Source: a virus. Taken from it: 29,871 nucleotides of DNA. The number at the start of each line of letters is the position of its first letter. Position 1 is the first letter of the stretch. This document shows positions 5,358 to 10,767 of this stretch, one piece after another. Under the pieces are notes generated by a model. That model ran no database searches, was not told the DNA's origin, and saw only the letters and a list, made by a program, of their open reading frames with translations. The position numbers and the translations under genes are program-made. Location: positions 1 through 29,871 of the IMG/VR virus record IMGVR_UViG_3300027985_000271. One strand, written 5' to 3'.

Positions 5358-5458
5358 GTGTGGCGGGTGTGGCGGGTTAGGGCCTTTTTTCCATTATTTC
5401 TCTATACGTGTCAGGAAAAAATATGTAAAAAGGCCTCAACCCGCCACACCCGCCACAC
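5358..5458. repeat. Inverted repeat of doubled GTGTGGCGG iterons, candidate replication origin
   Basis: The left arm 5358-5378 is GTGTGGCGG twice in tandem plus GTT. The right arm 5438-5458 is its perfect 21-bp reverse complement. After one mismatch the pairing continues inwards through GGCCTTTTT (5381-5389) and AAAAAGGCC (5427-5435), giving about 32 bp per arm around an AT-rich centre of 37 bp. The T tracts lie on the loop side of the stem, not after it, so this is not an ordinary terminator. Tandem iterons, an AT-rich core and the position beside a P4 alpha-type initiator fit an origin. A strong hairpin ending transcription of the early block is the alternative. Confidence 0.55.
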
Positions 5459-5468
5459 CTAGTTAATT

Positions 5469-5482
5469 TGCAAAATTTTGCA
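5469..5482. promoter_or_regulatory. 14-bp perfect palindrome, operator-like
   Basis: TGCAAAATTTTGCA is a perfect palindrome 18 bp before the start of the HTH gene at 5501. A dimeric regulator, possibly that HTH protein itself, could bind here. No convincing -35/-10 pair is visible around it. Confidence 0.45.
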
Positions 5483-5500
5483 CATTTAGGAGGGCTAGCG

Positions 5501-5734
5501 ATGAAGAGGCAAATTGCGGTCGGGACGAGCGGCAAACGACTGGGCGAGGACAGTGGCCGCGCAAAGCTGACCAATTCGGAAGTGGACTTGATCAGAGCGC
5601 TGCACGCCGACCACGGCCTGACCTATCCGTCGCTGGCTGACAAGTTCGAAGTGAGCGTTTCGCTCATCGGTAAAATCTGCAGGTACCAGCGCCGTGCCGA
5701 AGTGGCCACCGAATGGCGTACACTCAACGACTAA
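5501..5734 (+). CDS. Small helix-turn-helix DNA-binding protein
   Basis: A 77-residue protein with AGGAGG (5489-5494) correctly spaced before ATG 5501. Residues about 20-67 (from GRAKLTNSEVDLIRALHADHG) show the layout AKLT-x-EV-x-IR-AL followed by a helix-turn-helix around YPSLADKFEVSVSLIGKICR, as in small phage proteins related to resolvase or HNH-associated HTH domains. Likely function is DNA binding, either transcription control or packaging assistance. It lies between the origin-like repeat and the terminase genes, and a palindrome precedes it. A frame extension upstream of 5501 lacks a ribosome-binding site. Confidence 0.7.
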   Translation: MKRQIAVGTSGKRLGEDSGRAKLTNSEVDLIRALHADHGLTYPSLADKFEVSVSLIGKICRYQRRAEVATEWRTLND

Positions 5735-5771
5735 GCGCTGGGTTTTACTAGGAGACAGGAGGCAGAGAGCT

Positions 5772-6299: not shown

Positions 6300-6355
6300 G
6301 TTTACTGCTGCAATTCAAACACGCGCGTTCTGCGCGGTTTGGTGAGGTGTCGCAA

Positions 6356-7921
6356 ATGGCACTTACAAAAGCGCAACTAGCCCGCGCCCTGGAGCTTACC
6401 AGGGAACTGAAACGCCGCCGGCTGTGGTCCCCGCTCGAAGGGCCGCAGACCGATGCGCTGCAATCCGAGGCGGACATCACCGGATTTGGCGGCGCGGCTG
6501 GGGGTGGCAAAACGGATCTAGCCTGCGGCCTTGCGCTGACCAAGCACGAAAAGACCATGATCCTGCGGGAGAACGGCACCGAATTAACCGGTGTCATCGA
6601 CCGTTTGACTGAGCTGCTGGGCGGCCGCGACGGATTTAACGGCCAGGAGAAGATTTGGCGTACGGTTACGCCAGACGGCAAAGCCCGGCAGATTGAGTTC
6701 GGCTCGTACCCGAACCCCGGCGACGAGACGAAGTACCAAGGCCGGCCCCACGACCTGCTGGTCTACGACGAAGCAGCCAACCACCGCGAATCCGCAGTGC
6801 GCTTCCTGATGGGCTGGCTGCGCACAACGACTCCCGGCCAGCGCTGTCGGGCGTTGCTCACCTTCAACCCACCGACCACAGCAGAGGGGCGCTGGATTAT
6901 CGACTTCTTCGGCCCCTGGCTGAACAAGAAACACCCCAATCCCGCCAAGCCTGGCGAGCTGCGCTGGTTCGCAACGATTGCCGGCAAGGATATCGAGGTG
7001 CCAGACAACCGGCCCTTCGTCCTCGTCGGCGAAAAGCGCGTTTACGACTTCGACAAGGCGCAGCACAGACCCGAAGAAATCGTGAAGCCACTGTCGCGCA
7101 CGTTCATCCCGTCGCGCGTTTCGAACAACCCGTACTTGATGGGGACCGGTTACGTGACCACACTGCAAGCTCTGCCGGAGCCGCTGCGCTCCCAAATGCT
7201 CAACGGCGATTTCAACGCAGGCATCCAGGATGACCCTTGGCAGGTTATCCCGACCGCATGGGTCGAGGCCGCTATGGCCCGCTGGCAACCGAAGTTGCCC
7301 AAGCCGCCGATGGACTCAATGGGCGTGGACGTTGCGCGAGGGGGTAAGGACAACACGGTACTGAGCGCACGACACGGCAACTGGTACGATGAACTCATCA
7401 CATACCCAGGCAGCGCAACGCCCAACGGGCCGCAGACTGCGGGCCTTGTCATTGCGGCGACCCGCGATAAGGCGCCCATCCACATCGACGTGATCGGCGT
7501 AGGCTCAAGCCCTTATGACTTCTTGCGTGAAGCCAATCAGCAGGTGATCGGGGTCAACGTTGCGGAAGGCGCAACAGGCACGGACAAGTCAGGCCGGCTA
7601 CGGTTCTTCAACTTGCGCTCCCAGCTGTGGTGGCAGATGCGCGAAGCGCTCGACCCGTCGAGCAATACGGGTATCGCACTGCCTAACGACCCGCGCTTGC
7701 TGGCCGACCTGACAGCGCCCAAGTGGTGTCTGCGGGGGTCTATCGTGCAGGTGGAGAGCCGCGACGAGATTGTGAAGCGCATCGGCCGCTCGCCGGATTA
7801 CGCGTCGGCCGTTATCCTGGCGCAGATGGACACACCGAAGATGGCCGAGATCAAGCGCGCCATGGATATCATCCGCAAGGAAGTGCGCGGAGAATACGAC
7901 CCTTACGACACACTACGCTAA
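6356..7921 (+). CDS. Terminase large subunit
   Basis: A 521-residue packaging motor. ATPase domain: Walker A GAAGGGKT at residues 46-53, Walker B with DLLVYDE at 133-139 (catalytic Glu139), and a coupling-motif region at LLTFNPPTT. Nuclease domain: GVDVARGGKDNT with Asp325 as a metal ligand, further acidic residues downstream (HIDVIGVG) and an SPDYASAVILA end. Length and order match phage large terminases. ATG 6356 is preferred over GTG 6347 because GGTGAGG lies 8 nt before it. It works with the small subunit upstream and the portal downstream, separated by two probable accessory genes. Confidence 0.95.
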   Translation: MALTKAQLARALELTRELKRRRLWSPLEGPQTDALQSEADITGFGGAAGGGKTDLACGLALTKHEKTMILRENGTELTGVIDRLTELLGGRDGFNGQEKIWRTVTPDGKARQIEFGSYPNPGDETKYQGRPHDLLVYDEAANHRESAVRFLMGWLRTTTPGQRCRALLTFNPPTTAEGRWIIDFFGPWLNKKHPNPAKPGELRWFATIAGKDIEVPDNRPFVLVGEKRVYDFDKAQHRPEEIVKPLSRTFIPSRVSNNPYLMGTGYVTTLQALPEPLRSQMLNGDFNAGIQDDPWQVIPTAWVEAAMARWQPKLPKPPMDSMGVDVARGGKDNTVLSARHGNWYDELITYPGSATPNGPQTAGLVIAATRDKAPIHIDVIGVGSSPYDFLREANQQVIGVNVAEGATGTDKSGRLRFFNLRSQLWWQMREALDPSSNTGIALPNDPRLLADLTAPKWCLRGSIVQVESRDEIVKRIGRSPDYASAVILAQMDTPKMAEIKRAMDIIRKEVRGEYDPYDTLR

Positions 7922-7935
7922 CCAAGGAGCAACAC

Positions 7936-8226
7936 ATGGAAAATCAACATCGCAAAATCAAGGGCTATCGCGAATTGAGTCAGGCAGAAATCGACCTGAT
8001 GAACCGCATCAAAGCCAAGGGGGTGGAGTTGTTAGAACTGCAAGCCGAGCTGGTCGCGTCTCTTAACGATTACCAGACGTATCTCACAGTATCCGTAGGA
8101 GATGACGGGGAGGTGCAGAGATTCGAAGCTGCCGAGCCTTTCCGGTGGGCGGCCATCGGCAAAACCGACATCCAGACGGGGATCATGGCCCTGGTTCGTG
8201 CCGTCGCCCAACCCGCGGGCGTCTAG
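7936..8226 (+). CDS. acb2: Acb2-like anti-CBASS cyclic-oligonucleotide sponge
   Basis: A 96-residue protein starting at ATG 7936 behind AAGGAG. The start RKIKGYRELSQAEIDLMNRIK and the end FRWAAIGKTDIQTGIMALVRAVAQP match my recollection of the Acb2 family (DUF7681, related to T4 Vs.4), which binds cyclic di- and trinucleotides and blocks CBASS signalling. Published ligand contacts in the PaMx33 protein, as I remember them, are Tyr11, Lys26 and Arg67. Here Tyr11 and Lys26 fall at exactly these positions, and Arg70 of FRW corresponds to Arg67 after a three-residue insertion. The fold is two helices forming a hairpin, assembling as a hexamer. It lies 14 bp behind the large terminase, so late-operon expression is expected. 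Confidence 0.82.
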   Translation: MENQHRKIKGYRELSQAEIDLMNRIKAKGVELLELQAELVASLNDYQTYLTVSVGDDGEVQRFEAAEPFRWAAIGKTDIQTGIMALVRAVAQPAGV

Positions 8227-8236
8227 TGCACACAAC
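8225..8236 (+). repeat. Boundary box AGTGCACACAAC, copy 1
   Basis: A 12-bp sequence overlapping the acb2 stop, repeated exactly at 13130-13141 and with one change in the last base at 19615-19626. All three copies lie in intergenic gaps directly before a gene start. An extended hairpin follows this copy. Confidence 0.7.
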
Positions 8237-8237
8237 G

Positions 8238-8287
8238 GGGCGCCTTGCGGCTAGGGTGTGTGATATGCCCCAAACCGTGAGGCGCCC
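8238..8287 (+). promoter_or_regulatory. Hairpin enclosing the ribosome-binding site of the GNAT gene
   Basis: GGGCGCCT (8238-8245) pairs with AGGCGCCC (8280-8287). After a TG/TG internal loop, CGG (8248-8250) pairs with CCG (8275-8277). GTGAGG, the only ribosome-binding-site-like sequence before ATG 8290, lies in the 3' arm and would be masked. There is no T tract, so translational control is more likely than termination. Confidence 0.5.
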
Positions 8288-8289
8288 TG

Positions 8290-8739
8290 ATGCAAATCAC
8301 AATTCAACCTTGCGATCACGGCCAGCTACTCGAGCAAATCGGGGAGTTGGCTGTTTGCCATTGGCAAGAGATCGAGACGGAATTCAGCAACCGCGTGCCC
8401 GCGCCACACCGTGAAGTCTACGACGCGATGGCCGCTGCGGGGGCTCTGATTGCCTTCTCGGCTACGGTAGACGGTGCGGTTGTGGGGTATGCATCCGCAT
8501 TTTTGTGCCGGCATCCTCACTACGACATGCTGCTTGGGCAGCACGATACTCTGTACCTGATGCCTGAATTCCGTAACGGGTCCACAGGGTTGCGGCTGAT
8601 GAAGTCCATCGAGCAAGAAGCCTTTGCCCGAGGCGCGGAGCGCATGATGTGGACTGCCAAGCCCGGCAGCGCGTTTGAACGCATTCTGCAAAGCAAGGGC
8701 TACCGTACCGAAGAAACCATTTACTGCAAGGAGTTATAG
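8290..8739 (+). CDS. GNAT-family N-acetyltransferase
   Basis: A 149-residue protein with the GNAT fold order: an N-terminal helix pair, beta strands around GALIAFSATVDGAVVGYASAF, then DTLYLMPEFRNGSTGLRLMK, which is motif A with RNGSTG as the acetyl-CoA pyrophosphate-binding loop (Q/R-x-x-G-x-G/A variant), and a C-terminal AFERILQSKGYRTEETIY (motif B with GY). The closest type I recall is the acetyltransferase found in BPP-1-like and other podoviruses near the portal gene. Substrate unknown; modification of a host protein or toxin is possible. It sits as an insert between terminase/acb2 and portal, with its own boundary box and hairpin. Confidence 0.85.
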   Translation: MQITIQPCDHGQLLEQIGELAVCHWQEIETEFSNRVPAPHREVYDAMAAAGALIAFSATVDGAVVGYASAFLCRHPHYDMLLGQHDTLYLMPEFRNGSTGLRLMKSIEQEAFARGAERMMWTAKPGSAFERILQSKGYRTEETIYCKEL

Positions 8740-9057: not shown

Positions 9058-10767
9058 ATGGCGATTAAACCGTTAGAAGCGCCGGCCCCGACGAATAGCA
9101 TCCCAACGCGCGACGCCAAAGCCCGCTGGGCGGCATTGCAGGATGAGCGGTCGAGCTGGATTAGCCATTGGCAGGAGATAAGCGATTATCTGCTGCCGCG
9201 CTCCGGCCGGTTCATTTCGTCTGACCGCAACAACGGCGAACGCAAGCACAACAACATTCTGGACTCTACGGGCACACGTTCGCTGCGCATTTTGGCTGCT
9301 GGTCTCATGGCCGGCATGACCAGCCCAGCGCGCCCATGGTTCAGACTGACGACCAACGACCCCGAGCTTGACGAGTCTTCCGGGGTCAAGCTGTGGCTGT
9401 CCGACGTGCAGCGCATGATGCTGATGGTGTTCAGCCGGTCCAACACATACCGCGCCCTGCATTCCGTTTATGAGGAACTGGGCGCTTTCGGCACCGCAGC
9501 GAATATCATCCTCCCCGACTTCGGGCGCGTAATACACAACCAGTCGCTGACGATCGGCGAATACGCCATCGCCACGGACTACCGTGGGCAGGTGAATACG
9601 CTCTATCGGGAATTCGAAATGCGCGTCGGGTCCATGGTGCAGGAATTCGGGATCGACGCTGTATCGTCCACCGTGCGCAACATGTGGAATAGCCGCAAGG
9701 TTGATGCCTGGGTGAAGGTGCTGCACGTCATCGAGCCACGCGCCGAGCGCGATCTATCCAAGCGCGACGCGAAGAACATGCCGTTCCGCTCGGTCTACAT
9801 GGAGATAGGCGCAACTGACGGCAAGTTCCTACGCGAATCGGGGTTCATGCGCTTCCCCGCCGTATGTCCGCGCTGGAACGCCGTTGGCGGCGACATCTAC
9901 GGGAACAGCCCCGCGATGGAAGCCCTGGGCGATATCAAACAGCTGCAGCATGAGCAACTGCGCAAGGCGCAGGGGATTGACTACAAGACCAAACCACCGT
10001 TGCAATTGCCCACCGGCGCCAAGGCCAACATGCTGGACACGCTGCCTGGCGGCCTGTCCTTCGTAGATATGGCGGGGCCATCCCAAGGTATCCGCACGGC
10101 GTTCGAGGTCAATCTTGACCTGTCCCATTTGCTCAACGATATCCAGGACGTGCGCGAGCGCATTAGTTCATGCTTCTACGCCGACCTGTTCCTGATGATG
10201 AGCAACGACACGCGCAGCGGCATTACCGCAACGGAAGTCGCGGAGCGGCATGAGGAAAAGCTGCTGATGCTCGGCCCTGTGCTCGAGCGCCTGCACAACG
10301 AGCTGCTGGACCCGCTGATCGAAATGACCTTCGACCGGATGATTACGGCCGGCGTCGTGCCCCCTGCCCCTGAGGAGCTGAAGGGACGCGAGCTCAACGT
10401 CGAATTCGTGTCCATGCTGGCGCAGGCGCAACGCGCGGTGGCTACCAACAGCGTTGACCGTTATGTGGCCAATCTCGGCACCGTTGCGCAGTTCAAGCCG
10501 GACGTGCTGGACAAGTTCAACGCAGACGAGTGGGCCGACCAATACGCGGATATGTTGGGCGTCGACCCGAAGCTCATTGTCCCGGGCGAGCAGGTTGCCA
10601 TCATTCGCCAGCAGCGCGCGGAGCAGCAGGCCGCAGCGCAACAGGCCGCTGCTATGCAGCAGGGCGCGGACACAGCCAAGGCCTTGAGCCAAGCCAACAC
10701 CGATGGGGCCAACGCCCTGACCGATATCACCCAAATGTTCAGCGGCTACACAACGCCAGGAGCCTGA
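9058..10767 (+). CDS. Portal (head-tail connector) protein
   Basis: A 569-residue portal of the T7/BPP-1 connector type (bacteriophage head-to-tail connecting protein family). Recognisable stretches are DYLLPRSGRF near residue 45, the ILDSTGTRSLRILAAGLMAGMTSP segment, PWFRL, a GAFGTAAN region, and FRSVYMEIG. After these comes the long helical stem and crown, ending in a Gln/Ala-rich coil (about residues 515-545). It forms the dodecameric vertex through which the terminase packages DNA and to which the adaptor and nozzle attach. The length is normal for the family. Confidence 0.92.
   Translation: MAIKPLEAPAPTNSIPTRDAKARWAALQDERSSWISHWQEISDYLLPRSGRFISSDRNNGERKHNNILDSTGTRSLRILAAGLMAGMTSPARPWFRLTTNDPELDESSGVKLWLSDVQRMMLMVFSRSNTYRALHSVYEELGAFGTAANIILPDFGRVIHNQSLTIGEYAIATDYRGQVNTLYREFEMRVGSMVQEFGIDAVSSTVRNMWNSRKVDAWVKVLHVIEPRAERDLSKRDAKNMPFRSVYMEIGATDGKFLRESGFMRFPAVCPRWNAVGGDIYGNSPAMEALGDIKQLQHEQLRKAQGIDYKTKPPLQLPTGAKANMLDTLPGGLSFVDMAGPSQGIRTAFEVNLDLSHLLNDIQDVRERISSCFYADLFLMMSNDTRSGITATEVAERHEEKLLMLGPVLERLHNELLDPLIEMTFDRMITAGVVPPAPEELKGRELNVEFVSMLAQAQRAVATNSVDRYVANLGTVAQFKPDVLDKFNADEWADQYADMLGVDPKLIVPGEQVAIIRQQRAEQQAAAQQAAAMQQGADTAKALSQANTDGANALTDITQMFSGYTTPGA

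What the first reader, a model, noticed from the sequence alone, without database searches (positions are those of the whole stretch)
7936..8226. Acb2-like CBASS inhibitor directly behind the large terminase
Tyr11 and Lys26 fall at the exact positions I remember as ligand contacts in PaMx33 Acb2, and the FRWAAIG segment supplies the arginine, shifted by a three-residue insertion in an otherwise short family. This implies the phage meets hosts using cyclic-oligonucleotide defence (CBASS, perhaps type III CRISPR or Thoeris-like signals). The insertion before the arginine may alter ligand choice.
Basis: partly seen in the sequence, partly recalled or inferred. Interest (0 to 1): 0.72.

Follow-up and report, generated by a model that had tools for sequence, protein, structure and literature searches.

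The report
Acb2 immune-signal sponge in a podophage
This small phage gene encodes a genuine but ordinary member of the known Acb2 family, proteins that mop up the cyclic-nucleotide alarm signals bacteria use against phages; here it has been slotted as a single gene behind the DNA-packaging gene of a relative of Bordetella phage BPP-1.

Summary
Window 7936-8226 (+) encodes a 96-residue Acb2: Pfam Acb2_Tad1_hairpin E 2.5e-17, above its cut-off; solved PaP2/PaMx33 Acb2 E 6.6e-25; AlphaFold model pLDDT 89, whose best PDB matches are Acb2 8h2j/8h2x and T4 Vs.4 7uq2. Tyr11, Lys26 and Arg70 (= PaMx33 Arg67) align. Among 83 distinct relatives Lys26 and the arginine are invariant and Tyr11 is kept in 81.

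The "three-residue insertion before the arginine" is wrong. The E59-to-R70 segment keeps its pattern in 83 of 85 relatives. The length difference lies at the hypervariable hairpin tip, where this protein is among the shortest (Lys-Arg spacing 44, range 41-66), so it is no argument for altered ligand choice. The Thoeris suggestion has no support here.

New here: in a near-identical phage (L101, TerL 97%) the gene is absent and TerL abuts the GNAT region; Bordetella phage BPP-1 has the same empty order. acb2 is therefore a clean ~305-bp single-gene gain in a BPP-1-like late operon. CBASS inhibition by sequestering cyclic nucleotides is highly likely, but inferred. Host and ligand are unknown.

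The parts
7936..8226 (+). acb2: 96-aa Acb2-family cyclic-oligonucleotide sponge
   Evidence: PF24729 E 2.5e-17; PDB 8h2j/8ixz E 6.6e-25 and 2.7e-24; model matches 8h2j Z 10.9 and T4 Vs.4 7uq2 Z 9.6; phrog_717 E 6.5e-28
7924..7929 (+). ribosome-binding site AAGGAG, 6 nt before the ATG of acb2
   Evidence: read directly from the sequence
7966..7968 (+). codon for Tyr11 (CDN-pocket residue; equivalent to T4 Vs.4 Tyr8, whose Y8A mutant is binding-deficient per PMC12657230)
   Evidence: alignment; conserved in 81 of 83; literature
8011..8013 (+). codon for Lys26 (CDN-pocket residue by family knowledge)
   Evidence: alignment; 83 of 83
8143..8145 (+). codon for Arg70 = PaMx33 Arg67 (trinucleotide-pocket arginine by family knowledge)
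   Evidence: alignment; 83 of 83
7918..8222 (+). 305-bp segment (RBS plus acb2) absent from the near-identical phage L101; ends ambiguous by a few shared bases
   Evidence: junction alignment
6347..7921 (+). large terminase, BPP-1 (Bbp25) type
   Evidence: phrog_2; 61% to BPP-1 terminase, 69% to Limnohabitans phage DC33
5694..6299 (+). small terminase (Sf6-like)
   Evidence: PF20901 E 7.8e-43
8290..8739 (+). GNAT acetyltransferase, gene next to TerL in BPP-1 (bbp24) and L101
   Evidence: PF00583 E 2e-8; L101 94%; BPP-1 order
9058..10767 (+). portal / head-tail connector
   Evidence: PF12236 E 4e-189

Best explanation
The gene encodes an Acb2 sponge. By analogy with the solved PaP2/PaMx33 and T4 proteins, the helical hairpins assemble into a hexamer that binds cyclic dinucleotides in pockets between head-to-head protomers (Tyr11, Lys26) and cyclic trinucleotides at the ends of a central channel (Arg70 with the following conserved IGKTD segment). 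Sequestering these signals keeps CBASS effectors, and possibly cA3-driven type III CRISPR effectors, from firing, so the infected cell survives long enough to release phage. The gene was gained as a single ~305-bp cassette with its own ribosome-binding site at the 3' edge of the terminase gene in a BPP-1-like podophage, so it is probably co-transcribed with the packaging genes. Shown here: homology, fold, conserved residues, purifying selection and the natural empty site. Inferred: hexamer, ligands, anti-CBASS effect and timing of expression.
For: PF24729 above its cut-off, E 2.5e-17. phmmer to solved Acb2 E 6.6e-25 and 2.7e-24. Model pLDDT 89.2; best PDB hits are Acb2 8h2j/8h2x (Foldseek E 1.5e-6 and 4.2e-6; Z 10.9 and 10.7) and T4 Vs.4 7uq2 (Z 9.6), with unrelated helical proteins below. 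53% identity over the aligned part with Tyr11, Lys26 and Arg70 in place. 83/83 Lys26, Arg70 and Thr77 and 81/83 Tyr11 across distinct relatives. Purifying selection. Empty site in L101 and BPP-1.
Against: No binding or plaque assay. The hexamer was not modelled. The model's Z of 8-11 is near the background for helical hairpins, so the fold match alone would be weak without the sequence match. The host is unknown, so no CBASS operon can be tied to it. The late-operon position could mean expression too late for some CBASS systems.
Confidence: 0.94

Rival explanations
1. A Tad1-type sponge that shares the hairpin domain and sequesters gcADPR from Thoeris.
For: The Pfam model PF24729 covers the hairpin of both Acb2 and Tad1.
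Against: The protein ends where Acb2 ends (96 aa, all helix) and lacks the N-terminal antiparallel beta-sheet described for Tad1. All named best matches are Acb2.
Confidence: 0.02
2. An Acb2 that has lost or narrowed one pocket, so that it acts on only one class of signal.
For: Its hairpin tip is shorter than in nearly all relatives, and the review reports that different Acb2 homologs have limited binding spectra.
Against: Residues of both pockets are intact. The tip lies about 14 residues along the helix from Arg70, with a rigidly spaced conserved segment between. PaMx33, whose family member binds both classes, has an even shorter spacing (41).
Confidence: 0.08
3. A small structural or packaging accessory protein of the late operon; the Acb2 resemblance is only a helical hairpin.
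For: It sits between terminase and portal.
Against: 49-53% identity to solved Acb2 with ligand residues fixed. Absent from the same spot in L101, BPP-1 and all other TerL relatives sampled. Relatives elsewhere lie beside unrelated genes such as NinB, Q-like antiterminator, HNH or tail genes.
Confidence: 0.02

Closest known systems
Acb2 of Pseudomonas phages PaP2/PaMx33 (PDB 8h2j, 8h2x, 8ixz; experimentally shown cyclic-oligonucleotide sponge)
   Same: 53% identity over the aligned part, same ligand residues, same fold, same E-x-x-R-x-x-x-A-E-P-x-R-W spacing before the arginine
   Different: hairpin three residues longer; C-terminus AGV; gene lies between terminase and GNAT rather than next to a structural gene at a transcript end
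Acb2 homolog of phage Rollin (OR577172, annotated 'NAD/FAD-utilizing enzyme')
   Same: 83% identity over all 96 residues, no indel; the nearest relative in the tree
   Different: different phage and neighbours; synonymous sites near saturation, so not a recent exchange with this window
T4 Vs.4 (Acb2 of T4, PDB 7uq2)
   Same: same hairpin fold, Z 9.6, 26% identity; Tyr8 corresponds to Tyr11
   Different: distant in sequence
Tad1 (Thoeris anti-defence 1)
   Same: shares the Pfam hairpin domain with Acb2
   Different: Tad1 has an N-terminal beta-sheet domain, absent here
Bordetella phage BPP-1 (Rauchvirus) late operon
   Same: TerS-TerL-GNAT-...-portal order, TerL 61%
   Different: BPP-1 has no acb2 between bbp25 (TerL) and bbp24 (GNAT)

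Membership tests
Acb2 | Significant match to the Acb2 hairpin profile over its whole length | tested here: met
   PF24729 E 2.5e-17, 63.3 bits against a cut-off of 27, profile 1-58 of 58
Acb2 | Sequence homology to experimentally characterised Acb2 | tested here: met
   phmmer E 6.6e-25 (8h2j) and 2.7e-24 (8ixz)
Acb2 | Short N-terminal helix plus two long antiparallel helices with a kink | tested here: met
   H4-7, H16-54, H57-66, H68-90, pLDDT 89; best PDB matches are Acb2
Acb2 | CDN-pocket residues Tyr11 and Lys26 | tested here: met
   alignment; conservation. That these are contacts rests on general knowledge and on T4 Y8A
Acb2 | Trinucleotide-pocket arginine (PaMx33 Arg67) | tested here: met
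   Arg70 aligned, 83 of 83. Its role as a ligand contact rests on general knowledge, not a held paper
Acb2 | Homo-hexamer | not testable with these tools
   only single chains can be predicted
Acb2 | Binds cyclic oligonucleotides without degrading them; blocks CBASS | not testable with these tools
   needs calorimetry and plaque assays
Tad1 | N-terminal antiparallel beta-sheet domain before the helical hairpin | tested here: not met
   all-helical 96-aa model, no N-terminal sheet; definition from PMC12043709

The most novel reading that the evidence does not exclude
The hypervariable hairpin tip (residues 44-58, 2.7 bits mean entropy against 0.5-0.7 elsewhere, up to 22 extra columns) is a second functional surface, for instance one under selection to avoid host sensors or to set ligand range, and the short tip of this protein gives it a distinct specificity.
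Probability: 0.06. Interest if true: 0.45.

Novelty: new member of a known kind. Interest (0 to 1): 0.2.

Why it matters
It extends a characterised counter-defence family to a BPP-1-like podophage and gives a clean natural pair, with and without the gene at the same site, that shows Acb2 moves as a single-gene cassette and can be tested for what it buys the phage. It does not change what is known of how Acb2 works.

Tried and rejected
Insertion before the arginine as a specificity switch: rejected. Tad1/Thoeris reading: rejected. NCBIfam has no model that names the protein. No Rfam family and no consensus sigma-70 promoter near the gene. Host assignment: not possible; the record is a 29.9-kb virus fragment and DNA-level matches to isolated phages are short. 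The original Acb2 papers (Cell 2023, Mol Cell 2024, Nature 2024) are not in the held library, so Lys26 and Arg67 as contacts rest on general knowledge; Tyr is backed by T4 Y8A. Neighbourhoods of relatives showed no fixed partner gene, so a conserved acb2 operon was rejected. The acb2 tree has few columns and weak deep support; it is used only for the nearest relative.

Full report
What is there. Window 7936-8226 (+) is an intact ORF of 96 residues, ATG to TAG, 14 nt after the stop of the large terminase, with AAGGAG six bases before its ATG. The window is a 29,871-base virus record with no other contig. Its gene order is methyltransferase, replication genes including a primase/polymerase, Sf6-like TerS, TerL, acb2, GNAT, portal, tail needle, protease, major capsid protein, tail proteins, endolysin, a 2028-residue protein and a tail fibre. 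Together with the TerL comparison this makes it a podophage of the Bordetella phage BPP-1 kind (TerL 61% to BPP-1, 69% to Limnohabitans phage DC33).

Identity. The protein matches Pfam PF24729 Acb2_Tad1_hairpin at E 2.5e-17, well above the curated cut-off and over the whole profile. It matches the solved Acb2 of PaP2/PaMx33 at E 6.6e-25 (8h2j) and 2.7e-24 (8ixz); PMC11722364 names 8H2J as the PaP2 Acb2 hexamer. An AlphaFold model from 40 aligned sequences has pLDDT 89.2 and the expected short N-terminal helix and long kinked hairpin. Its best PDB matches are Acb2 (Foldseek E 1.5e-6; Z 10.9) and T4 Vs.4 (Z 9.6), ahead of unrelated helical proteins at Z 8.8 and below. Helical hairpins score middling Z by default, so the sequence match carries the weight.

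Ligand residues. In the alignment to PaMx33 Acb2, Tyr11 and Lys26 fall at positions 11 and 26, and Arg70 is Arg67. Over 83 distinct relatives fetched here, Lys26, Arg70 and Thr77 are invariant and Tyr11 is kept in 81, the two exceptions being cysteine. In T4 the equivalent tyrosine mutant Y8A is described as binding-deficient (PMC12657230). That Lys26 and Arg67 are contacts is general knowledge of the Acb2 structures; the original papers were not held.

The insertion. Across relatives the spacing from Lys26 to the arginine runs from 41 (PaMx33) to 66, and 44 here is among the shortest; lengths run from 93 to 119 aa. A 74-aa miniature exists in L102. All extra columns in the alignment fall at one place, after residue 52, within a hypervariable stretch 44-58 (mean entropy 2.71 bits against 0.73 before and 0.52 after), while E59-x-x-R62-x-x-x-A66-x-P68-x-R70-W71 keeps its pattern in 83 of 85. 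In the model this stretch is the end of the first long helix and the turn, well along the hairpin from the arginine. There is no reason to expect changed ligand choice from it.

Selection and spread. Against its nearest relative, phage Rollin (83% identity), dN is 0.12 with synonymous sites near saturation. Homologs occur in 224 phage records, mostly of Vibrio and Pseudomonas, in 241 IMG/VR stretches and in loci of several bacterial genomes, mostly Proteobacteria. Their neighbours vary: NinB, Q-like antiterminator, tail and head genes, HNH endonucleases. Acb2 thus travels as a single gene.

Empty site. In L101, a fragment of a near-identical phage (TerL 97%, GNAT 94%, portal 96%), the TerL stop is joined directly to the sequence that follows the acb2 stop in the window. 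The window carries an extra 305 bp, 7918-8222, comprising the ribosome-binding site and acb2. BPP-1 has the same order without acb2 (bbp25 TerL, bbp24 GNAT), and none of the other TerL relatives in which TerL and portal could both be placed has acb2 between them. The parsimonious reading is a gain in the window's lineage. In other phages with related TerL or capsid genes acb2 lies elsewhere, for instance before the tail gene in L027 and L064 and between portal and capsid genes in L080, which points to repeated acquisition.

Mechanism. By membership, the protein should form a hexamer that sequesters cyclic dinucleotides and trinucleotides and so disarms CBASS effectors, and possibly cA3-driven type III CRISPR effectors; the review PMC12043709 describes both for Acb2 and gives gcADPR binding to Tad1 and Tad2 only. 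Binding, oligomer and benefit to the phage are inferred. Two 2025 studies describe a host system, Panoptes, that detects phage through such counter-defence proteins (PMC12657218, abstract; PMC12657230), so carrying the gene can also be a cost; that fits a gene that is present in one and absent from another of two near-identical phages, but this is inference.

Verdict. Observation confirmed, interpretation right on identity and wrong on the insertion and on Thoeris. A new member of a known family, with low surprise.

Noticed in passing
window 8233-8292: Strong RNA hairpin (-41.1 kcal/mol for 8215-8300, z -3.1) between acb2 and GNAT that covers the GNAT start codon; the element also follows TerL in L101 (weaker, z -1.3), and an exact 22-base stretch of it occurs in IMG/VR only in L101's contig apart from this record. 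No Rfam match.
   Followed up: partly
L044 5001-5321; L061 5001-5321: Two otherwise intact Acb2 homologs carry Cys instead of the ligand-contact Tyr11; they may have lost or changed dinucleotide binding.
   Followed up: no
L102 from 8416: A 74-residue miniature Acb2 with a much shorter hairpin, in a phage whose TerL is 75% identical to the window's, at another site.
   Followed up: partly
OR577172.1 1455-1745 and several Pseudomonas phage records: Acb2 homologs annotated as 'NAD/FAD-utilizing enzyme' (ACLAME 1462), a misleading label.
   Followed up: no
L161 (PQ492659.1): Limnohabitans phage DC33 is filed under Inoviridae although it carries a BPP-1-like large terminase in a tailed-phage gene order.
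   Followed up: no
window 5358-5458: Inverted repeat with 32-nt arms, 94% complementary, just after the primase gene; window 5361-5747 is 98% identical to L101 1-387, higher than the flanking genes.
   Followed up: no
TerL-portal interval of L108, L113, L114, L137, L140, L158: The interval between TerL and portal varies from about 50 to 1,700 bases among relatives and holds differing small ORFs, so it may be a site of accessory gene turnover.
   Followed up: partly
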